The notes beneath the pieces are model-generated. The model worked only from the letters and a program-made list of their open reading frames with translations. It made no database searches and was not told where the DNA came from. Of a stretch of 41,403 nucleotides of DNA, positions 12,350 through 33,899 are shown one piece after another; positions within the stretch are counted from its first letter, which is position 1, and every line of letters begins with the position of its first letter. A program made the position numbers and the translations under genes. Origin of the DNA: a virus; IMG/VR virus record IMGVR_UViG_3300010885_041437, positions 1-41,403 of that record. One strand, given 5' to 3'.

Positions 12350-12672
12350 GTCGACACCTCCAGCGTGCAGCCGGGCGCCAGCCAGAACGACGCCGCGCCA
12401 CCGGCCTTGCGGGCGCGCGCGGCGAGGCGCTCCTCAACGCCGGGCATCCGGCTCGCGGCGAGCTCGCGCGCGGCCTTGCTCAGCTCGGGGTGGGTCGACG
12501 CAGCCCGGAGCGACATGTAGAGGTCGGCGGCGTCGAACGGACGGGTGAAGGCGTCCAGCCACACCTGCAGCTCACGGGCCTCGGGGCGCCATGCCTCGGG
12601 GTAGCGACGCTCGGGGAACAGGTCGCGCTGGGGGCGGACGGGCGGCGCGGCCCACCGGCTACGGCTACCCAC
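12346..12672 (-). CDS. Hypothetical 108-aa protein of the accessory cassette
   Basis: GTG 12672 follows GAGGTGTCC, the same ribosome site used for the portal gene. The product is basic at the N terminus (GSRSRWAAPPVRPQRDLFPE), then helical with several aromatic residues (YPEAWRPEARELQVWLDAF) and a Glu/Ala-rich helix ending in TLEVST. It overlaps the upstream zinc-protein gene by eight bases and is coupled to the C5 methylase gene. I do not recognise a family. Linkage suggests that it belongs with the methylase. Confidence 0.6.
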   Translation of the reverse strand: MGSRSRWAAPPVRPQRDLFPERRYPEAWRPEARELQVWLDAFTRPFDAADLYMSLRAASTHPELSKAARELAASRMPGVEERLAARARKAGGAASFWLAPGCTLEVST

Positions 12673-12892
12673 CGGACACCTCGCAGCGACCGGTGGTGGT
12701 CGGGCACACGTCGCGGACGGGCACCGGCTTGGGCTCCAGGGCAGGGTTCGTGCGCTTCGGGCCGGGCGGGTGGTGGATCTCGCACACCCTCAGCCACCCG
12801 GTGCTGGTGCGGATGCACAACAGGGGGTCGCCGCAGCGGGGGCAGTTGACGAGGCCTTCGCCGGGGTCGCCGACTTCGGTGGGGCTGGTCAC
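12665..12892 (-). CDS. Small zinc-ribbon-like protein (75 aa)
   Basis: GTG 12892 overlaps the stop of the small membrane gene in GTGA. The longer frame to 13093 runs through two other coupled genes and is rejected. The product contains VNCPRCGDPLLCI and later WLRVCEIHHPPGP, then VCPTTTGRCEV. The CxxC pairs and the Cys-His segment suggest a single zinc-binding fold. Function is unknown. The protein might bind nucleic acid. Confidence 0.6.
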   Translation of the reverse strand: MTSPTEVGDPGEGLVNCPRCGDPLLCIRTSTGWLRVCEIHHPPGPKRTNPALEPKPVPVRDVCPTTTGRCEVSGG

Positions 12893-21331: not shown

Positions 21332-22504
21332 TCACCCGGCGGGCGTGACCTCGATGTCGTAGGCGAAGCTCGACGCCCGATAGCTGGAGTAGACACCGGC
21401 GGGCAGCGCAGCCATGATCGTCTGGGTGTTCAGCCCGATGACCGAGGTACGGACCACGACGGGGTCGAGCGCCGTGTAGCGTTTCAGGCCGCCGGGGCCG
21501 GACTGGATCAGCAGGCAGCGGTCGATGTTCGTGCCGCCTGCGTCCTGCATCGACGGGGCGATGATGACGCGAGAGATCCCATACTCGGCCAGGCGCGACC
21601 GGAGCTGCGCGCCGGGGTCGAACGGAAACGCGCCGCTGGTCGTCACGGGCGCCGACAGGCGGTTGACCACGCGCTGGGTGAGGATCGCGGTGTCGGGGGC
21701 GAAGATACCCAGCGACAGCTCACCGATGCGCTGCAGGAACCGGGTGAAGTCCTGCAGGCAATCCTGCACGGCGTCGGTGCCGTACACGAGCGCCGACGAG
21801 CCACGCAGCATCGGCGTGTTTGCGATGGAGCGGAACCCGATGCCAGCAGGCGTCGAGACGAGCGCCGACTCCAGGGCCTGGTCAAGCGCGACCTTGGCGG
21901 CGTTCGCCTTCTCCGCGCTCGGGCTCACGGCGTAGTTGGGGCTCTGGGCGCGCTGCTCTTGCACCCAGTGCAGGTTGGTGCTCGTCCACGCGATCTCGGG
22001 CGTGCCCCAGAATTCCGACGCCACCGTGTAGTCGCTGATCGGCATGGAGGTGTCGCCGCCGCGACCCCACTGGGTCTGGCCGGTGTAGTCGAGGTAATCG
22101 ACGCGCACCGTGTCGGTCCAGATCGGCAGCTGATACGCCGGCATTTCGTCCATCAGGCGCGTGGGCCGGAAAATCGGCTTGACGGGCGGGCCGGCGACAA
22201 ACGTGTTTGCCTCGGGCACGGTGGACGCGGCGTCAGCTGCGCGCAGACCGTGCAGGCCGAGCATGAAGGACCGCACACCGGCGGCGCCAGCGGAGTCGGC
22301 CGAGCGAATGCCCAGCGACTCGCGCAGCGCGACGGTCGCGTCGGCGATGATGAAGTCGCGGCGCGACCAGTTGGCGACGGCGCTATCGCCGAGCCGCTTG
22401 GTCGCAGCTTCGCGGCCCTTGACAGCCGCCACGTCGAGCGCGGCGAGAATGTCGTGGTGGCTGATCGGTGGGGCCGTCAGCGCGTGAGGATTCGGCACGA
22501 ACAT
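21332..22504 (-). CDS. Major capsid protein (DUF2184-like, HK97 fold)
   Basis: The 390-residue product has the order and style of DUF2184 major capsid proteins: an N-terminal arm with AVANWSRRDFIIADATVALR, a SFMLGLHGLRAADAAS segment, PIWTDTVRVDYLDYTGQTQW, YAVSPSAEKANAAKVALDQA and a spine-helix region. The C-terminal portion has RYTALDPVVVRTSVIGLNTQ and ends AYDIEVTPAG. It is the largest virion gene after the scaffold region and is followed by a terminator hairpin. ATG 22504 has GAGG about six bases upstream. Confidence in the capsid call is high. Confidence in the exact family is moderate. Confidence 0.85.
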   Translation of the reverse strand: MFVPNPHALTAPPISHHDILAALDVAAVKGREAATKRLGDSAVANWSRRDFIIADATVALRESLGIRSADSAGAAGVRSFMLGLHGLRAADAASTVPEANTFVAGPPVKPIFRPTRLMDEMPAYQLPIWTDTVRVDYLDYTGQTQWGRGGDTSMPISDYTVASEFWGTPEIAWTSTNLHWVQEQRAQSPNYAVSPSAEKANAAKVALDQALESALVSTPAGIGFRSIANTPMLRGSSALVYGTDAVQDCLQDFTRFLQRIGELSLGIFAPDTAILTQRVVNRLSAPVTTSGAFPFDPGAQLRSRLAEYGISRVIIAPSMQDAGGTNIDRCLLIQSGPGGLKRYTALDPVVVRTSVIGLNTQTIMAALPAGVYSSYRASSFAYDIEVTPAG

Positions 22505-22516
22505 GGGCGGCCTCGG

Positions 22517-23716
22517 TCAGATGGTGATGGCGGCGGAGGCGCCACCGGAGGGGTCGGTCTGCGAGAACACGACCGCGACCCGGTTGCGCGAGCGCATCGG
22601 TGCGGCCGTGGTCGAGGGGGTCGGGGTGATGCGACCCTGGGTCGAGCCGGCGGTGGTCTCGACGTAGACCTGGGCGCCAGGGGTGCAGGATGCACCGCTG
22701 GCGATCTCCGCTGCCCAGTTGCAGCCGCCACCGAGGACGACGGGCACGACGCGGGGCTGGCCGCCATCGACAGTCGCGATGGTGTTCGTGGCCCGACCAC
22801 GGATCGGGGCCTGGTCCTGCGGATCGCGAATGAACAGGTAGGTGGGCACAGCCGTGCCCTCCGCCGCCGTCGCCGTCATCGCCGGGGAGCCGCCGCCGCC
22901 CGTCGCCGAGGTGGTGAGCGGGACGATGCTGCCCCAACCGAGCGGGAGGGACAGGACGACGTTCGGGCTGGACGTCGCGACGAGCGCGCCGGTGATGCCC
23001 GCGACCTGGGTGGTGATGGCCGCGTTGACCGCGACGAGCGTGGCCGCGAGGTTGGCGCCGGCCGATGCCGACCAGCTCACCGACTGCTCGACGCCGTCGG
23101 GGTTCTGGACGGTGAACGTCCCCGCGTAGGTCGCGCCGGCGCCGTGGGTGACCGCGTAGGTCAGCGTGGACGGGGTGAGCGCGGCGACGGGCTGAACCGT
23201 GGGGTTCGGGCCAGACGCACCGACGAGCTCGCAGACGCGGCCGAAGTAGTAGGTGGGCGCGTCAGCGGCGGCCGTGGTTGCCGTCTGGGTGAGGTTGGTC
23301 GAGGGGTTCGCCGGGAAGGTCACGGTGAACGTGTAGTCCGCGCCGCCACGGGTGCAGGTCAGCGCCAGGTTGTTCGTGCCAGCGGCGGCGGTTGCGATCG
23401 TGCCCAGCTCAGCGTCGGCGAGCGCGGCGGCGACGAGGCCGTCTGCGATCTCCTGTTGCGTCGCCGATGCGTCGCTCGTGTAGCTCACGGTGCGGCTGAC
23501 CGAAAAGCCCCAGCCCGCGCCGGTCGCGACGACTTTCATGGAGTAGGCGGAGCTGTTGCTCGCCGCCGTGACGTTGACGGTCGTAACCTGCGGGACTGCG
23601 ATGTCGTCGGACAGCGCACCGAGGAGCAGGGCGGCGGTCAGGACGCCCGACACCATGCGACCAACGGCGGCGTAGGCCGGGCTCGTCTGTGGGAGGAAAG
23701 GGTAGGTCATGGTCAC
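22517..23716 (-). CDS. Virion structural/head decoration protein, hypothetical 399 aa
   Basis: GTG 23716 overlaps the upstream stop in GTGA, and ATG 23710 is an alternative two codons later. The product is rich in Thr, Ala, Ser and Val with long beta segments (TTVNVTAASNSSAYSMKVV, YTFTVTFPANPSTNLTQT, VEQSVSWSASAGANLAATLV). It begins with MTMTYPFLPQTSPAYAAVGR, an opening seen in phage head fibre or decoration proteins next to capsid genes, and ends in a small compact domain with ASCTPGAQVYVET. Repeats of an Ig-like fold are likely. Position just before the capsid gene supports a head surface role. Confidence 0.6.
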   Translation of the reverse strand: MTMTYPFLPQTSPAYAAVGRMVSGVLTAALLLGALSDDIAVPQVTTVNVTAASNSSAYSMKVVATGAGWGFSVSRTVSYTSDASATQQEIADGLVAAALADAELGTIATAAAGTNNLALTCTRGGADYTFTVTFPANPSTNLTQTATTAAADAPTYYFGRVCELVGASGPNPTVQPVAALTPSTLTYAVTHGAGATYAGTFTVQNPDGVEQSVSWSASAGANLAATLVAVNAAITTQVAGITGALVATSSPNVVLSLPLGWGSIVPLTTSATGGGGSPAMTATAAEGTAVPTYLFIRDPQDQAPIRGRATNTIATVDGGQPRVVPVVLGGGCNWAAEIASGASCTPGAQVYVETTAGSTQGRITPTPSTTAAPMRSRNRVAVVFSQTDPSGGASAAITI

Positions 23717-24735
23717 ACGTCCGTGGGGCTGTGGGTGGTGGTGCGGTTGCGCTGCTCACGGGCACCCGCCTGCGATGCGCGATCCCAAGCGTCGCCGACG
23801 CGGCCGCTCTTTGCGGACGCCAGCACGGCGCTGACGGCGTGCTCTCGGACAGCGCGGTCGAGGTCCGCGACCGTCCAGGCAGGGTCGATCGTGATCCCGA
23901 GGCTGTCCGCTGCGCGGTAGGTGTCGGCCATGTCTGCGGCCTTGGCCTCCGCGGCTTCCTCGGCGGGGGTCTCGGTGCCGGCGCCGGGGACGGCGTCACC
24001 CTCGGGGACCTCGACAGCCACGCCGGCCTGCGCGCCCAGCTTGGCGGTGGCCTCGGCCAGCTGGCGCTCGAGGTCGGTCGCGCGGGCGCTGTGTTCCAGC
24101 ACCATCTTGATCAACGCCTCAAACATGGCCATCGGGTCGGCGGCGTCGCCGACCTTGGCCTGGATCGTCTTGAGCAGCTCGGGGTTCATTGGCAGGGCTC
24201 CTGAGTCGGCGGCGCGGAGTCGGGTAACGCCGTGCCGGGGGGTGCGGGTGATCGCGACGTTGCTCGGGTCGTAGCGCCGCGCCTGCTTAAGCGTGTAGCC
24301 GTCGCCGGCCTCTGCGACGAGGTCGACGTCATAGCCCACCGAGACGCCGTCCACGCCCATCCGTACCGCGTCGAGGCCCCGCTGGACGTCGATCAACACG
24401 TCGCCGACGAGGGCCTGCTGGGCGTCGTCCCACCACGCCGACAGCACCCGGCCGATCGCCTCGTCCTGCATCGTCTCGGTGGTGACGCCCTCGGCGTGGG
24501 CGCGCTGGTCGTCGTCGATGACGGCCACGCCCTGGAGCGCGTCGCAGAACACCTTGTCGGCCAGCGTCTCGGCCGGGGTGCAGACCCACGCGCCCAGCGA
24601 GGGGTAGTGGTACGTCCCGGGGACGGCGAGCACGGCCTGGTAGATGACGCCGCCGGTCCCGGAGACAGCACGGGGCGGCGCGACCGTGTAGCGGGTCGAG
24701 TCGATGCGGTCGCTGAGGCGTGCGTGGGTCGTCAT
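23713..24735 (-). CDS. Prohead protease/scaffold-type protein (DUF2213-like)
   Basis: The product has 340 residues from ATG 24735. A longer frame to 24762 has no ribosome site. N-terminal residues include IDSTRYTVAPPRAV, then ALQGVAVIDDDQRAHAEGV. A DUF2213-type core carries SVGYDVDLVAEAGDGYTL and RYDPSNVAITRTPRHGVTR, the usual signature near residue 170. The second half has a coiled coil (HSARATDLERQLAEATAKLG) and a disordered acidic linker, like a fused scaffold. DUF2213 proteins sit between portal/MuF and capsid and act in prohead maturation. A catalytic serine is not obvious, so the protease role is inferred. Confidence 0.7.
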   Translation of the reverse strand: MTTHARLSDRIDSTRYTVAPPRAVSGTGGVIYQAVLAVPGTYHYPSLGAWVCTPAETLADKVFCDALQGVAVIDDDQRAHAEGVTTETMQDEAIGRVLSAWWDDAQQALVGDVLIDVQRGLDAVRMGVDGVSVGYDVDLVAEAGDGYTLKQARRYDPSNVAITRTPRHGVTRLRAADSGALPMNPELLKTIQAKVGDAADPMAMFEALIKMVLEHSARATDLERQLAEATAKLGAQAGVAVEVPEGDAVPGAGTETPAEEAAEAKAADMADTYRAADSLGITIDPAWTVADLDRAVREHAVSAVLASAKSGRVGDAWDRASQAGAREQRNRTTTHSPTDV

Positions 24736-24771
24736 GGGGACCGCGTACACCACGCGGGGCACAGACGCAAG

Positions 24772-24804
24772 AGCGCCCCGGTCCAGGGGAGGATCCGGGG
24801 CGCT
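24772..24804 (-). terminator. Terminator-like hairpin downstream of the tRNA
   Basis: AGCGCCCCGG (24772-24781) and CCGGGGCGCT (24795-24804) pair perfectly over 10 bp with a 13-base loop. On the minus strand it lies between the tRNA and the DUF2213-like gene and is followed by CTTGCG, a poor T tract. It could end tRNA transcripts or mark a processing site. Confidence 0.5.
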
Positions 24805-24880: not shown

Positions 24881-24954
24881 TTGCGGGAACCGGATTTGAA
24901 CCGGCGACCTCCGGGGTATGAGCCCAGCGCGCTACCAGACTGCGCCATCCCACG
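24881..24954 (-). tRNA. tRNA-Met (CAU), initiator-type
   Basis: The minus strand folds into a complete cloverleaf of 74 nt. The acceptor CGTGGGA pairs with TCCCGCA except at position 1-72 (C-A), the mismatch characteristic of bacterial initiator tRNA. The D-stem is GCGC/GCGC with an AGTCTGGTA loop. The anticodon stem CTGGG/CCCGG gives three consecutive G:C pairs (29-31:39-41), a second initiator hallmark, with loop CTCATAC and anticodon CAU. The T-arm is GCCGG-TTCAAAT-CCGGT. The discriminator is A. CCA is not encoded. The D-stem pair 11-24 is C-G rather than the A-U of the E. coli initiator. It lies between the MuF-like and DUF2213-like genes, flanked by hairpins. Confidence 0.9.
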
Positions 24955-25060: not shown

Positions 25061-25957
25061 CTAGCCGTCGTCGCCCAGGTCGACCACGGGAATACTGACG
25101 CACCTACACTGAAAATCCCCGCCCGGGTGCGCCCGGCGCCCGGTCTTCTGGTCCACCACGGGCGGATCGTCCCACCGCTGAACCGTGCCGTCGAGCGCGC
25201 GGTGGTCGGGACGGGTCCGCTGGTCGCGCGACGCCCTCCACTTGTACGACGTGATCCCCGCCGCCTTGTGGGTGGCCTCGGTGATCTTGCCGTTCAGCTT
25301 GGCGATCTGGTCGCGCGCGATGAACTGCGAATGCCGCTCCCCCACACCCAGCCGGTCGTCGACGATGCGCTTGAGGTCCCGCGTCAGCGTGCCCTTGCGC
25401 GCGGCCTCGGCGATCTCCGCGTCGAGACCGGCGACGAGGTCCTGCCCCACGGTCTTGATCAGGTCGGTGCCGTCGCGGCTCCACAGCGTGAGCGCCGCCT
25501 GCTCAGCCAGCGTCGGGGCGATGTCGACGCCCAGCACCAGCGGGACTTCCACGCCCAGCCGGAGCGCGACCTCGGCGCGGGGCACCCCCGCGTTTTCCAC
25601 GCTCTTGCGGGCCGTGCGCATCGACACCCGGGCGGCGGGCTTGCCCACGGCCTCGACCTCGGGCGGGCTCGGCGGAACCAGCCGGAGCATCTGCAGGCGC
25701 CGGGCGTGGTCGCGGGCTTGCTCTTGCTGGCGGAGCAGGTCGGCGGCTTCCTCCTGGGGGGTCTTGGGCTTCGGGTCCTCGGCGTCGGCGGCGCGGTTGA
25801 GGCCGAGCGCCGCGTACACCTGCCGCTTCCACTGGCGCATCGTGCGGTTCACGAGCTGCAGGTAACCGCGGGGGCTCGGGGCGCCGGGGCGGTCGATCTT
25901 CCACGGGCGCTTGGCGTCGGCCAGGCGCTGGCGGCGGCGCTCGTACTCGGTGGGCAC
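25061..25957 (-). CDS. Mu gpF-like head morphogenesis protein
   Basis: The product has 298 residues from GTG 25957, one base past the portal stop, with GGGGAGGG upstream. N-terminal helices (EYERRRQRLADAKRPWK, LVNRTMRQWKRQVYAAL) lead to the MuF domain. The C-terminal part has QFIARDQIAKLNGKITEATH, then YKWRASRDQRTRPDHRAL and a closing HPGGDFQCRCVSIPV, the standard MuF signature with its Cys pair. MuF proteins assist DNA injection or head assembly and follow the portal gene. The upstream frame to 26041 overlaps the portal and is rejected. Confidence 0.85.
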   Translation of the reverse strand: MPTEYERRRQRLADAKRPWKIDRPGAPSPRGYLQLVNRTMRQWKRQVYAALGLNRAADAEDPKPKTPQEEAADLLRQQEQARDHARRLQMLRLVPPSPPEVEAVGKPAARVSMRTARKSVENAGVPRAEVALRLGVEVPLVLGVDIAPTLAEQAALTLWSRDGTDLIKTVGQDLVAGLDAEIAEAARKGTLTRDLKRIVDDRLGVGERHSQFIARDQIAKLNGKITEATHKAAGITSYKWRASRDQRTRPDHRALDGTVQRWDDPPVVDQKTGRRAHPGGDFQCRCVSIPVVDLGDDG

Positions 25958-25958
25958 C

Positions 25959-27278
25959 TCAGCCCTCCCCGAGGTTGTCGGCGCTGTCGTCGTCCTCGAT
26001 GGCGTCAGGCAGCACCACGGGCAGGGGCAGCTCCTCGTCACCGGCGAACCGCGCCCGGACCTCCTCTGGGGTGATGGCCCCGAGCGAGACCAGGGTGGAG
26101 TCGCGGGTGGCGCGCGTGCTGGAGATCGTCGCCTCCTCGGCGGCCGTGGGCGGGTCGCTGTCCGGCCAGTGAATCACCCGGCGCTCGTCACCCAGGGCGG
26201 TCCGGTAGAGCTCCAGAAGCCACGGGGTGAGCCGGCGGCGCTGGTGGCGCATGATGAACTTCCGGTAGGCCTTGCGCGCGGCGACGTCGTCACCGGACAG
26301 GCCGCCCGGGGGCGTGGTCATCAGGACGGTGATCGGGATGCCCTCGACGGCGCCGAGCTGCTCGTACTGGACGCGGACGCCCTCGGCGAGGCCAGTCATC
26401 GGGGCCTCTAGGCGTTCGACCTTGTTGTTTCCGGTCAGCAGCGCGGTCCCGCGGGTGGAGCGGGTGCGACCCCAGAGGTCCAGGGCGTTCCAGGCCTTTT
26501 TGACCTCCTCGTCATCGGCCGAAAACAGCCCCTGTCCGCCCGGGACGGTCATCACCACCATGCTCTGCTCCATCAGCGCGAGCGCGGCGGAGCGGCGGGC
26601 CAGACCGAGGTCGCGGACGGCCTCCCAGTACGCCTGCACGACGGAGATGTCGTAGCCGAGGATCGTGGGGTTGATCGTCGTCCGGCTGCGGGGGAGGCCG
26701 GGCATGTAGAGCAGGTGGCTGCGGTGGACGACGCCGACGCCTTGGCCGATGCCGGGGCGGATGGCTTGGACCTGGAACAGCTCGGGGTTCGTCCAGTTCT
26801 TTGACTTGAGGTCAGTGCTCCACGTCAGCGGCAGGCACTCCAGCGCCATCAGCGGGTGGATCGCGATGACGTTGTGCGGGCCGGGCGGCAGCGGCTTGCG
26901 GAGGTCCTGCACGCCCTCGCAGACCATCAGAGCGTAGCAGCCGCCGTACTGCCGGGCGACGGCGTCGACCTCCTCTAGCACGGACTCCAGGCCCAAGGCG
27001 TCGTCGAAGTCGGCGGTGATGTCGGTCTCGGCGCTGTTGCGGGAGTCGGTACGCCACCCCTGCGCCAGAGCGTCCTCGGGCACGGCGTACACGACGCGGC
27101 GGAGGATGCCCTCGACGACCACGGCGTCGTCCTGCTCTTGCGGGCTCAGCCATGCCGGGTGGGCGGGGCGGGCGTCGCGGGCCTTGTCGATGCCCAGAAC
27201 CCCGAGGCCCGTCGCCACGCTGGAGACGCTGTCAGCCAGCCGCCACTGTCGGCCCACGCGCGAGAACACGTCGTCCAC
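25959..27278 (-). CDS. Portal protein (DUF1073-like)
   Basis: The product has 439 residues from GTG 27278, with GAGGTGTCC directly upstream. The longer frame to 27482 overlaps the terminase and is rejected. Recognisable parts are an N-terminal clip region (VDDVFSRVGRQWRLADS), KNWTNPELFQVQAIRPG, HRSHLLYMPGLPRSRT, ALMEQSMVVMTVPGGQGLF, and the C-terminal LSGDDVAARKAYRKFIMRH. The last of these is the strongest match to DUF1073 portals. Portals form the dodecameric DNA entry ring. It is followed by MuF and preceded by TerL, as usual. Confidence 0.85.
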   Translation of the reverse strand: MDDVFSRVGRQWRLADSVSSVATGLGVLGIDKARDARPAHPAWLSPQEQDDAVVVEGILRRVVYAVPEDALAQGWRTDSRNSAETDITADFDDALGLESVLEEVDAVARQYGGCYALMVCEGVQDLRKPLPPGPHNVIAIHPLMALECLPLTWSTDLKSKNWTNPELFQVQAIRPGIGQGVGVVHRSHLLYMPGLPRSRTTINPTILGYDISVVQAYWEAVRDLGLARRSAALALMEQSMVVMTVPGGQGLFSADDEEVKKAWNALDLWGRTRSTRGTALLTGNNKVERLEAPMTGLAEGVRVQYEQLGAVEGIPITVLMTTPPGGLSGDDVAARKAYRKFIMRHQRRRLTPWLLELYRTALGDERRVIHWPDSDPPTAAEEATISSTRATRDSTLVSLGAITPEEVRARFAGDEELPLPVVLPDAIEDDDSADNLGEG

Positions 27279-27316
27279 GGACACCTCACCCCGGCACGTT
27301 ACCCCGGGGTGGTGCG

Positions 27317-28867
27317 TCAACGCCACCGCGCAAGCATCGCCCCGGCGTCCGCGCCCTGGGTGGTGGCCTCGCGCTCTTGGTGCCAGAGGATGACCATCGT
27401 GTCGGCGTCGGCCTCGTCGTCCACCTCGCGGTCTTTGAGGCCGGTCACGACCAGCAGCCGCTCGACGTAGCCGGACAGCCACGGGGGTGGTGGGTCTGGC
27501 AACAGGAACGACCGGGCCTCAAACGTCGGGGAGGCGGCGAGGTAGCAGTCGCGTTTCCCCCTCGACTTCGGCACCGGCACCACGCGGGGCAGCGTGCGGC
27601 TGATCGTCTGAAACACCTGCTTGCCGGACGACTTGACCTCGACCAGCACCCCGCTTGGGTTGGTCTCGGCGATCACCCGCTTGCACAGCTCCAGCAGCTC
27701 GGGAAACTCCAGTTGCTGCCGCCACTGCCACAGCTTCAGGTACCGGCCCTCACGGAACCCCACCCACGTCAGCACCGACCAGTCCCCGCCGCCTGCGGTC
27801 TCGGCGCCGTCCAGGGCCAGCACCGTCCACGCGCACGACCTCGCTACCACCGCCGGTCCTGCGGCGGCTTGGTACGTCGCGGACAGGTGCTCGGGCTTCC
27901 AGAGGCCCCCGCCGTCCTCCATCGGGTCGCAGTCGAGGATCGCGCGGGCCAGGCGCTCGCCGTAGGTGGCGCGCTGGGCGGCCTCGCGCTCGGGGCTCCA
28001 GCCGGGGAGGAGGTAGGCGCCGGGCGCGCGGCCCATGATGTCGTTGGCCTTGGCCCGGAGCGGGTAGGACCACACGCGCAAGGGGTGGCCGCCGCGCTCG
28101 GCGAGCTGCTTGTACTTGCCGATCGGGTCGTCGGCGCCCCAGCGGCTGCCGACCAGGACGATCGCGCCGCCTCGGGTCGCCACACGGGTCTCGGCGCTGG
28201 AGCGGATGAAGCTCCACGCCTCGTCCCGGGCGGCGGCGCTGGCGTAGTCGGATTCGTCTTTCAGGAGGTCGTCGCCCACGACCAGCCAGACGGACCGGCC
28301 GTTGAGGCCACCGCGACGGCCACGCGCGACAAACCGGGTGTTGCGGCGGCCCGGGTGGACGTTGGGGATGCTCCAGTCCCGCTCGGTGTCCTTGATGACC
28401 TCGCCGGATTCGTCGTCGAGGTCGTCGAGCGCGGGGTCGGCCACCCGCTGGAGGTGCGGCCACACCCGGCGCGCCACGCCCGACCGGAGCAGCGCGCGCA
28501 CCCGGCGGGAGATCTCGACGCTGAGGCTGTCGGCGTAGCTGCCGAGGCCCACGGACTGCCCGGTGGACGCCATGTGCCACGCGAGCCACCGGGCGACGAG
28601 CTCGGTCTTGCCGGCCTGGGTCATCACCTCCAGGGCGGCGCGGATCTGCACCGCCGGCAACCCCGAGGCGTAGGCGAGCTCGGCCGCGACGAGGTCCAGC
28701 GACACCTGCTGAAGGCGCCCGGCGGCGTCCCGCTGCCAGTCGGCCAGCACGAAGTCCCCGAGCTCCGTGGGGCCAGCCACCTCCAGCCACGCAACCAGGG
28801 ACGTCCGCGCCTGACGGATCAGGCGCTCACGCTGGGCGAGCTGGAGGAGGTCGGCGCGGGTGGTCAC
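27317..28867 (-). CDS. terL: Terminase large subunit
   Basis: The 516-residue protein has the terminase ATPase and nuclease domains. The Walker A is divergent, MTQAGKT at residues 82-88 rather than GxxxxGK[ST]. SVGLGSYADSLSVEISRRVR is the following conserved helix. Walker B is WLVVGDD at about 194-200, followed by LLKDES. The RNase H-type nuclease part has ALDGAETAGGGDW (Asp near 353), LVEVKSSGKQV and DDEADADTM near the C terminus. The enzyme cuts and pumps DNA into the prohead. GTG 28867 overlaps the upstream stop in GTGA. The gene is separated from the putative TerS by three genes, including an SMC-like ATPase. Confidence 0.85.
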   Translation of the reverse strand: MTTRADLLQLAQRERLIRQARTSLVAWLEVAGPTELGDFVLADWQRDAAGRLQQVSLDLVAAELAYASGLPAVQIRAALEVMTQAGKTELVARWLAWHMASTGQSVGLGSYADSLSVEISRRVRALLRSGVARRVWPHLQRVADPALDDLDDESGEVIKDTERDWSIPNVHPGRRNTRFVARGRRGGLNGRSVWLVVGDDLLKDESDYASAAARDEAWSFIRSSAETRVATRGGAIVLVGSRWGADDPIGKYKQLAERGGHPLRVWSYPLRAKANDIMGRAPGAYLLPGWSPEREAAQRATYGERLARAILDCDPMEDGGGLWKPEHLSATYQAAAGPAVVARSCAWTVLALDGAETAGGGDWSVLTWVGFREGRYLKLWQWRQQLEFPELLELCKRVIAETNPSGVLVEVKSSGKQVFQTISRTLPRVVPVPKSRGKRDCYLAASPTFEARSFLLPDPPPPWLSGYVERLLVVTGLKDREVDDEADADTMVILWHQEREATTQGADAGAMLARWR

Positions 28868-32213: not shown

Positions 32214-32667
32214 CCGTGACACGTTCTATCAGTCTGTCGAGCTCCTCGTCGCTCAGGCCCTGGAGCACCTGGCCGGCGTGCTGAACGTGGACGGGCTCGG
32301 CGGGGTCGCCGGTGTGGATCAGGCGCACAGGCTCGCGAGGCACACCCAGCTCGACAAGGGCGCGGGCGGCAGACACCCGAGCAGCCGCTGGGGCTTTTTT
32401 GTCGCGGGCCACCTCGACCAGCGTGGCGACGCCTGCGGGCGCAGCTGCGACGATCGACTGGCGGATCGCGCCTGCTGCGTCGTCGGTCAGCACCCGGATG
32501 AACGCGGCGACGTGGGGTTTTGCTGCGGTGATGCGGACCGAGTTGTAGTTGGTGTTCAGGTCCTTTGCCAAGGCCCGCAGAGACATGCCCCGGAACCGGC
32601 CCTCGGCGACCGCGAGCTCGTGCTCGGTCAGCAGCTGGTCATCCATTCGAAGCCCCATCACTGGCAT
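32188..32667 (-). CDS. Terminase small subunit-like protein
   Basis: The 159-residue product has an N-terminal helix-turn-helix-like part (QLLTEHELAVAEGRFRGMSL, RALAKDLNTNYNSVRITAA) followed by a helical region with VARDKKAPAAARVSAARALV and a C-terminal tail, the layout of small terminase and phBC6A51-like proteins. Such proteins recognise the packaging site. ATG 32667 has AGG six bases upstream. ATG 32658 and 32646 are possible, the last overlapping the Mom-like stop by eight bases. Identification is by pattern and location near TerL, from which it is separated by three genes. Confidence 0.6.
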   Translation of the reverse strand: MPVMGLRMDDQLLTEHELAVAEGRFRGMSLRALAKDLNTNYNSVRITAAKPHVAAFIRVLTDDAAGAIRQSIVAAAPAGVATLVEVARDKKAPAAARVSAARALVELGVPREPVRLIHTGDPAEPVHVQHAGQVLQGLSDEELDRLIERVTVDDSTPAR

Positions 32668-33349
32668 CGCCAGCCTCTGCAGGGTGGAGCGTCAGGGTCG
32701 GATCTGCCCCGCCTTTCGCTGGTTGGACACCAGCGCCCCTCTCAGGGCTAACGCGCTTCGGGTATGGCTGGGCCAGTGGTAGCACCTGGATCTTCATCTG
32801 GCAATCGAGCGGCATCAGATACCTGTGTTTTCCTGGCAACTCGACCCTGACAGAACCGGCAGGCAACTCCTGGCGATTTTTTCCGAAATTGTGGCCTGTA
32901 TATGCCCGCTTGTTTAGCCGTTTTCCGTTCAATCGGAATTCGTGCGACTTTTCAGTCGTGCCAGCATAAATCCAGTTTGTAGCCTGGTATATTCCACCAT
33001 GATGGCCCTGCACCGGGTCAGCGAATGAGACGACCATTCTTAGCCCAGGAGATGATTGCTTTAAAAACCTAAGAGAAATTGCCAGTATCCTAGATACCTG
33101 AACCTCGTGGCTTGAAAGCGCGACCCTAACCAGCTCGCAGCATTCTGTTAACTGCAATCCATACGGCTTTCCCAAATCCTTGTTCGCGCCCCATGTAAAT
33201 ATAACTACTCCGATAAATGCATCGTTTTCCCATACGCCTATTTTTACAAGCTTGCCGACAGGCACTGTCTTGGTATAATGCCATTTTTTGCAGGCATATG
33301 CTGCTGCATCGTGTGTCGCCCAGTCTACCCTCACATTACTTTTTGCCAT
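32639..33349 (-). CDS. Mom-like DNA adenine modification protein
   Basis: The 236-residue product matches the phage Mu Mom family. Conserved stretches include ACKKWHYTKTVPVGKLVKIG, then WENDAFIGVVIFTWGANKDL, GLQLTECCELVRVALSSHEV, LRMVVSFADPVQGHHGGIYQ and ATNWIYAGTTEKSHEF, and the ending GKHRYLMPLDCQ. Mom proteins belong to the GNAT fold and convert adenine to a methylcarbamoyl derivative, protecting phage DNA from restriction. The last 40 residues (after LPLAQPYPK) are Pro/Gly/Ala-rich and probably not part of the enzyme. The coding DNA is clearly richer in A+T than its neighbours, and Mu mom is likewise atypical in composition. It overlaps the ParB-like gene by 14 bases, so it is translationally linked to it. 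Confidence 0.85.
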   Translation of the reverse strand: MAKSNVRVDWATHDAAAYACKKWHYTKTVPVGKLVKIGVWENDAFIGVVIFTWGANKDLGKPYGLQLTECCELVRVALSSHEVQVSRILAISLRFLKQSSPGLRMVVSFADPVQGHHGGIYQATNWIYAGTTEKSHEFRLNGKRLNKRAYTGHNFGKNRQELPAGSVRVELPGKHRYLMPLDCQMKIQVLPLAQPYPKRVSPERGAGVQPAKGGADPTLTLHPAEAGDASDGASNG

Positions 33350-33899
33350 AACTTGCGCTCCATTGAAATTGGTGGGCGCATGAAGGGCATGTAACTGACT
33401 TCGATGCTACTTCATCAAGCGATGGCTGTTCATCTGCTGTGCCTGGCTTAAAGTCGGGCTCGGCGACCATCGCAGCGATGTCTGCGTCGTCCCAGCCAAT
33501 GCCGTGGGCGTCGTCGCCGAGGCCCCGCAGGATCTCGACCAGCTCGTCGTCGTCCCAGGGGCTCGCCTTGGTCAGCTGGTTGTCGGCGAGCGTGAGACGG
33601 ATGGCGGTGGCGTCGTCGACCTCCACGAACCGCACAGGCACGAGGCCAGGCTTGGGGGCGTCGGACAGCTGCCACGTCGGGTCCGCTGCGATGGCCCGCA
33701 GCGCCGCGAGCCGCCGGCCGTGGCCTGCAATCACCCGGCGGTCAGACCTGCGGGCGACGATCGGCGCCGTCCACACCGACGAGGCAATCAGCGCCTCGAG
33801 CTCAGCGACACCCGCCTCGTCGTGGATCACCGGGTTCCGGTCCCACGGTTTGAGCTGCTCGACGTGCAGCCACTCGGCGGCGGCGGTTGCTTTCGTCAC
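33336..33899 (-). CDS. ParB-like nuclease/CTPase-domain protein with C-terminal zinc ribbon
   Basis: The product has 187 residues from GTG 33899, with AGGAGGG upstream. The N-terminal domain follows the ParB/sulfiredoxin pattern: LHVEQLKPWDRNPVIHDEAG, then VIAGHGRRLAALRAI carrying the GHGR core, and VRFVEVDDATAIRLTLADNQ. The C-terminal part has SVTCPSCAHQFQWSASYGKK with one CxxC. ParB-domain proteins of this kind commonly accompany phage DNA modification genes. The Cys pair beside a Mom gene also recalls the zinc protein Com, which activates mom translation in Mu, but the evidence for that role is only positional. The last 40 codons are A+T-rich, unlike the rest, so the gene may be a chimera. 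Confidence 0.75.
   Translation of the reverse strand: MTKATAAAEWLHVEQLKPWDRNPVIHDEAGVAELEALIASSVWTAPIVARRSDRRVIAGHGRRLAALRAIAADPTWQLSDAPKPGLVPVRFVEVDDATAIRLTLADNQLTKASPWDDDELVEILRGLGDDAHGIGWDDADIAAMVAEPDFKPGTADEQPSLDEVASKSVTCPSCAHQFQWSASYGKK

What the first reader, a model, noticed from the sequence alone, without database searches (positions are those of the whole stretch)
24881..24954. Phage-encoded initiator-type tRNA between head genes
The tRNA has the C1-A72 mismatch and three G:C pairs in the anticodon stem, both hallmarks of tRNA-fMet, and the CAU anticodon. Phage tRNAs are usually elongators, and an initiator in the head-gene block is unusual. It may boost late translation, replace a host initiator damaged by an anti-phage nuclease, or be a relic of an integration site. 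The D-stem 11-24 pair is C-G, unlike the E. coli initiator.
Basis: partly seen in the sequence, partly recalled or inferred. Interest (0 to 1): 0.8.

Follow-up and report, generated by a model that had tools for sequence, protein, structure and literature searches.

The report
Phage-made start tRNA, slightly disguised
This virus of bacteria carries its own copy of the tRNA that starts every protein, altered at two positions that no chromosomal bacterial start tRNA in our samples varies, one of them the exact base where a known bacterial toxin cuts it; the same kinds of change recur in many unrelated phages.

Summary
The tRNA is real (minus strand, 24954-24881; ARAGORN Met-CAU; Rfam 58.9 bits) and sits in a contig with phage genes along its whole length, between a MuF-like head gene and the prohead protease. 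It is an initiator: C1xA72, three G:C pairs, CAU, and 87.8 bits against a model of bacterial initiators versus 61.7 for CAU elongators. It is not a host copy. Of 244 initiator matches from about 240 genomes in three phyla, 241 have U24 and all 244 have A38; the three exceptions are copies in the genomes I had used as seeds. The window tRNA has C11-G24 and C38. Both changes recur in phages: C11-G24 in 57 IMG/VR stretches against 13 in 84,980 genomes, and C/U38 in 22 distinct viral tRNAs. The 1:72 mismatch is kept although its letters vary, so initiator function is selected. A38 is the base 5' of the VapC cut site in tRNA-fMet (literature). Best reading: a functional phage initiator standing in for a host initiator attacked during infection. 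Initiator identity is strong; the evasion purpose is inferred, and the host is unknown. Phage fMet tRNAs are known, and a place beside terminase/head genes recurs. New variant of a known kind.

The parts
24881..24954 (-). phage-encoded initiator-type tRNA-Met(CAU): C1xA72, U3.G70, C11-G24, GGG/CCC anticodon stem, C38, A73, no CCA encoded
   Evidence: ARAGORN; Rfam RF00005 58.9 bits; initiator model 87.8 bits vs elongator model 61.7 bits
24881..24954 (-). within this tRNA: position 38 (last base of the anticodon loop CUCAUAC) is C; A in all 244 host initiator matches; it is the base 5' of the VapC cut site reported for tRNA-fMet
   Evidence: sequence; host comparison; cut site from PMC4105405
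25001..25048 (-). terminator-like hairpin (ACCCGCC...GGCGGGTTTTGCG) between the MuF-like gene and the tRNA
   Evidence: fold (-28.6 kcal/mol for 65 nt, z -2.4); terminator scan
24772..24804 (-). strong hairpin (AGCGCCCCGG...CCGGGGCGCT) between the tRNA and the protease gene; possible 3' end of the tRNA unit
   Evidence: fold (-31.5 kcal/mol, z -6.06)
25061..26041 (-). MuF-like head morphogenesis protein, gene 5' of the tRNA
   Evidence: PHROG 324 E 1.2e-37
23713..24762 (-). head maturation protease, gene 3' of the tRNA
   Evidence: PHROG 530 E 1.4e-12
25959..27482 (-). portal protein (true start probably inside this ORF)
   Evidence: PHROG 146 E 2.1e-53
27317..28867 (-). terminase large subunit
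   Evidence: PHROG 38 E 2e-37
21332..22504 (-). major head protein
   Evidence: PHROG 264 E 2e-5

Best explanation
It is a functional initiator tRNA gene belonging to the phage. During infection it is transcribed with, or as its own unit inside, the late head-gene block. After CCA addition by the host enzyme it is charged by host MetRS, formylated, and used in the ribosomal P site. Its most likely purpose is to keep initiation going when host tRNA-fMet is depleted by an initiator-targeting toxin such as VapC. C38 (and perhaps C11-G24) departs from the host initiator at positions such enzymes could read, so the phage copy would be cut less. Shown: the gene, its place, the initiator hallmarks, the phage-specific departures and their recurrence. 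Inferred: expression, formylation, use in initiation and resistance to a nuclease.
For: Initiator identity: 87.8 vs 61.7 bits. Initiator function is under selection in the class: the 1:72 pair is mismatched in 38 of 45 distinct viral C11-G24 tRNAs, with letters AC, CA, AA, GA, CC, TT or TC, while pairs 2:71 to 7:66 are kept in 41-45 of 45. In viral loci, 1:72 is paired in 23 of 95 initiator-type tRNAs but 264 of 274 other tRNAs. Departure from host: 241 of 244 host matches have U24 and 244 of 244 have A38. C11-G24 gives 57 IMG/VR stretches and 13 in 84,980 genomes; at least four of the 13 tRNAs are identical to copies in IMG/VR viral contigs. Non-A38 gives 26 viral stretches, 22 distinct tRNAs including the window (17 U, 5 C). 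Enteric VapC cuts tRNA-fMet between A38 and C39 (PMC4105405). Anticodon-loop changes in phage tRNAs are proposed to evade such enzymes (PMC10264068). Phage tRNAs evading a tRNA-targeting defence are reported in PMC11555353 (abstract).
Against: The host, and so any initiator-cutting toxin in it, is unknown. No expression data. Most C11-G24 viral tRNAs keep A38, so evasion through base 38 cannot explain phage initiators in general. That C38 blocks VapC was not tested. U3.G70 and C11-G24 might weaken formylation. PMC10264068 states that phages of VapC-bearing Shigella generally avoid encoding tRNA-fMet.
Confidence: 0.5

Rival explanations
1. Dosage: a working initiator that simply raises the supply of tRNA-fMet for the burst of late protein synthesis; its differences from the host are neutral drift or relaxed constraint.
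For: Lies in the late head block, same strand; phage initiators next to terL or head genes recur; most viral copies keep A38.
Against: Drift does not readily explain change at a base that is A in 244 of 244 host matches, or why only C and U were seen at 38.
Confidence: 0.33
2. Decaying tRNA: picked up from a host or another phage and no longer working.
For: U3.G70 and G49.U65 wobbles, odd base 38; no tRNA in any of the 23 loci holding distant relatives, most of which cover this region only in part.
Against: Full cloverleaf, no broken pair except the one expected at 1:72; initiator model 87.8 bits; the class as a whole keeps the 1:72 mismatch.
Confidence: 0.08
3. Integration-site (attachment) relic or host DNA joined to the contig.
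For: tRNA genes are common attachment sites (general knowledge).
Against: Intact tRNA in the middle of the head module, phage genes from end to end and no integrase among the ORFs tested; no repeat of 13 or more bases of the tRNA elsewhere in the window; C11-G24 and C38 were not found in chromosomal host copies.
Confidence: 0.04
4. Elongator tRNA (Met or lysidine-modified Ile2) misread as initiator.
For: CAU anticodon and an elongator-like C11-G24 pair.
Against: 26 bits better with the initiator model; 1:72 mismatch and GGG/CCC stem; the CAU elongators sampled have G1 paired with C72 or U72 and mostly a 31:39 A-U pair.
Confidence: 0.03

Closest known systems
Bacterial initiator tRNA-fMet
   Same: C1xA72 mismatch, G2-C71, G4-C69, three G:C pairs at 29-31:39-41, CAU, T-loop UUCAAAU, A73
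   Different: C11-G24 instead of A11-U24, C38 instead of A38, U3.G70 instead of C3-G70
Phage-encoded tRNA-fMet/Met genes in isolates (Stenotrophomonas phage vB_Sm_QDWS359, Erythrobacter phage ZS04, Janthinobacterium phage Donnerlittchen, Pseudomonas phage PaMx74, Bordetella phage PHB04) and in S. meliloti phiLM21-like prophages (PMC12429752)
   Same: one or few tRNAs, initiator type; several beside terL; ZS04 and PHB04 share C11-G24; PaMx74 shares C38
   Different: here between the MuF-like gene and prohead protease, with C11-G24 and C38 together; another phage lineage
Phage tRNAs that evade tRNA-targeting defences (anticodon-loop mutants of mycobacteriophage cluster C1, PMC10264068; tRNAs countering retrons and other defences, PMC11555353)
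   Same: phage copy of a tRNA targeted by host enzymes, changed in the anticodon loop near the reported cut site
   Different: those reports concern other tRNAs (tRNA-fMet is described as generally avoided in Shigella phages); here the initiator, no defence system identified, no experiment

Membership tests
Bacterial-type initiator tRNA | mismatch at 1:72 | tested here: met
   C1xA72 in the sequence
Bacterial-type initiator tRNA | three consecutive G:C pairs in the anticodon stem, CAU anticodon | tested here: met
   GGG CUCAUAC CCC
Bacterial-type initiator tRNA | purine 11:pyrimidine 24 pair | tested here: not met
   C11-G24; 241 of 244 host matches have U24. Common among viral initiator-type tRNAs, so this marks a phage variant and I call it initiator-type, not a standard bacterial initiator
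Bacterial-type initiator tRNA | scores better as initiator than as CAU elongator | tested here: met
   87.8 vs 61.7 bits
Bacterial-type initiator tRNA | aminoacylated with Met, formylated, bound by IF2 in the P site | not testable with these tools
   needs biochemistry
Phage-encoded tRNA (not host DNA) | embedded in phage genes | tested here: met
   terminase, portal, MuF, protease, major head, neck, tape measure and baseplate genes around it
Nuclease-evading phage tRNA | anticodon-loop change at or next to a known cut site of a toxin acting on that tRNA | tested here: met
   C38 versus A38 in 244 host matches; VapC cuts 38/39 (PMC4105405)
Nuclease-evading phage tRNA | host carries a nuclease that cuts its initiator, and the phage tRNA resists it | not testable with these tools
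   host unknown

The most novel reading that the evidence does not exclude
Phages across many lineages carry a distinct class of initiator tRNA that keeps the functional 1:72 mismatch but has dropped features that bacterial toxins could use to find tRNA-fMet (A11-U24, A38). The phage would thereby run initiation on a tRNA the cell cannot switch off, which would make initiator-targeting toxins such as VapC part of phage defence.
Probability: 0.3. Interest if true: 0.8.

Novelty: new variant of a known kind. Interest (0 to 1): 0.52.

Why it matters
Host initiator tRNAs hardly vary, so phage copies that vary at fixed places while keeping the 1:72 mismatch are a natural mutagenesis experiment. They show which initiator features can be lost, and point to positions that host toxins may read. 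Whether toxins against tRNA-fMet act in phage defence becomes directly testable with a few transcripts and one toxin.

Tried and rejected
TerL and major head protein searches of IMG/VR found no relatives. 23 distant relatives found through the MuF-like protein carry no tRNA in the stretches held, but they are too distant, and many too partial, to date the acquisition. A sigma-70-type promoter scan around the tRNA was empty. A search for repeats of the tRNA as an attachment site found only two 12-base matches, taken as chance. Papers with the primary VapC data and the initiator checkpoint work were not held, so the cut site is taken from PMC4105405. A thermodynamic fold of the lone tRNA gave a non-cloverleaf minimum, which is not informative for GC-rich tRNAs and was set aside. 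Host assignment failed: protein matches to named phages are spread over Actinomycetota and Pseudomonadota phages, among others, mostly at low identity.

Full report
Observation. The window is a complete IMG/VR virus record of 41,403 bases, 70.7% G+C and without terminal direct repeats. It holds one tRNA, on the minus strand at 24954-24881: ARAGORN Met(CAT) and Rfam RF00005 at 58.9 bits. CCA is not encoded.

Surroundings. All genes named around it are phage genes on the same strand: terminase large subunit, portal, MuF-like head protein, [tRNA], head maturation protease, an unknown protein, major head protein, neck protein, then a weak tail-sheath match, tape measure and baseplate genes. On the other side are a Mom-like DNA modification protein, a ParB-like protein, helicases and a DNA methyltransferase. 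No integrase was found among the ORFs tested. The tRNA has a terminator-like hairpin with a short T run upstream (25048-25001, z -2.4) and a very strong hairpin downstream (24804-24772, z -6.06). The roughly 200-base unit may therefore be transcribed on its own, like a moron (inference); no sigma-70-type promoter was recognised. None of the 23 IMG/VR loci with a related MuF protein has a tRNA in the stretch held, but they are distant and many are partial.

Initiator or elongator. Covariance models were built from 20 bacterial initiators (R1) and 19 bacterial CAU elongators (R2), both with the same cloverleaf. The window tRNA scores 87.8 bits with R1 and 61.7 with R2. For comparison, one host initiator scores 97.1 and 65.6, and a host CAU elongator 63.5 and 98.9. 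It is an initiator by sequence.

Not a host copy. In samples of about 80 genomes each from the phyla of three seed genomes (Actinomycetota, Pseudomonadota and Bacillota, judged from the record titles of the seeds), an initiator pattern open at bases 24 and 38 gave 244 matches: 241 have U24 (so A11-U24) and all 244 have A38 (rows counted by hand). The three G24 matches lie in the three seed genomes, which had been chosen because they hold such a tRNA. Of 12 genomes holding a C11-G24 copy, six also showed a normal initiator with the pattern used.

A phage class. The same anticodon-arm pattern with C11-G24 occurs in 57 stretches of IMG/VR but only 13 of 84,980 bacterial and archaeal genomes; at least four of these 13 tRNAs are identical to copies in viral contigs. 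U11-A24 or G11-C24 gave 7. Base 1:72 was not part of any search pattern, yet 38 of 45 distinct viral C11-G24 tRNAs are mismatched there, with seven letter combinations, while pairs 2:71 to 7:66 are kept in 41-45 of 45. In the viral loci available for the control, 1:72 is paired in 23 of 95 initiator-type tRNAs and 264 of 274 other tRNAs (133 loci were loaded in that script). Keeping a mismatch while its letters change indicates selection for initiator function.

Base 38. A scan for non-A38 gave 26 IMG/VR stretches. With the window, 22 distinct tRNAs were parsed: 17 U38, 5 C38, no G38. Most keep the 1:72 mismatch, five also have C11-G24, and many are the only tRNA in their locus. VapC of Shigella and Salmonella cuts tRNA-fMet between A38 and C39 (stated in PMC4105405 citing Winther and Gerdes 2011). 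Phage tRNAs with anticodon-loop changes have been proposed to evade such enzymes (PMC10264068), and phage tRNAs that evade retrons and other defences are reported in PMC11555353 (abstract only). PMC10264068 also notes that phages generally avoid encoding tRNA-fMet where VapC-LT2 is the threat, with the target described as the anticodon itself. The present tRNA would be an altered, not an avoided, initiator.

Place in the genome. Phage initiator tRNAs are not rare: 77 GenBank phage records match this tRNA, though several of these are evidently bacterial sequence in records labelled as phage. They lie directly after terL in Stenotrophomonas phage QDWS359, Erythrobacter phage ZS04, Janthinobacterium phage Donnerlittchen and Pseudomonas phage PaMx74, two of these without annotation. 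In viral contig L304, a C38 initiator lies between terminase and prohead protease. A single tRNA-fMet is also described in S. meliloti prophages (PMC12429752).

Verdict. A phage-encoded, probably working, initiator tRNA of a phage-specific variant. Replacement of an attacked host initiator is the best single purpose (about one half), plain dosage the main rival (about one third). What is new here is the class-level pattern: C11-G24 and non-A38 enriched in phages, with the mismatch preserved but its letters free. I found no paper that describes it, though the library searched is incomplete.

Limits. The patterns fix many bases, so they find canonical copies only and the counts are lower bounds. 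IMG/VR contains prophages and some host sequence. Relatedness among viral tRNAs was reduced only by counting distinct sequences. The host is unknown, and nothing here shows expression or resistance.

Noticed in passing
L315:2506-2582 (Janthinobacterium phage Donnerlittchen): Initiator-type tRNA directly after terL with anticodon loop CCCATAA, so C33 instead of the nearly universal U33 (C33 is otherwise known from eukaryotic cytosolic initiators).
   Followed up: no
L318:2503-2578 (Pseudomonas phage PaMx74), L313:2497-2573 (Erythrobacter phage ZS04), L319:2501-2576 (Bordetella phage PHB04): Initiator-type tRNAs that are not annotated in the deposited records; PaMx74 has U32 and C38, ZS04 and PHB04 have C11-G24.
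   Followed up: partly
L294:2205-2577: A viral contig with 22 tRNAs also holds a tmRNA-like gene (tag DTKVVSIAPQPVRLAA) beside a U38 initiator-type tRNA.
   Followed up: no
L080:10791-10865 and 12616-12688: One phage tRNA array holds two initiator-type tRNAs, one with A11-U24 and one with C11-G24.
   Followed up: no
window 24772-24804: Very strong GC-rich hairpin (z -6) without a T run just upstream of the protease gene; may end the tRNA transcript or regulate the protease.
   Followed up: partly
window 32639-33899: Mom-like DNA modification protein next to a ParB-like protein, a pair also seen in Enterococcus phage phiEf11.
   Followed up: no
H44, H41, H42, H66: Long GenBank records filed as phage (691 kb Salmonella, about 200 kb Acinetobacter phage MD-2021a) look like bacterial sequence carrying the host initiator.
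   Followed up: no
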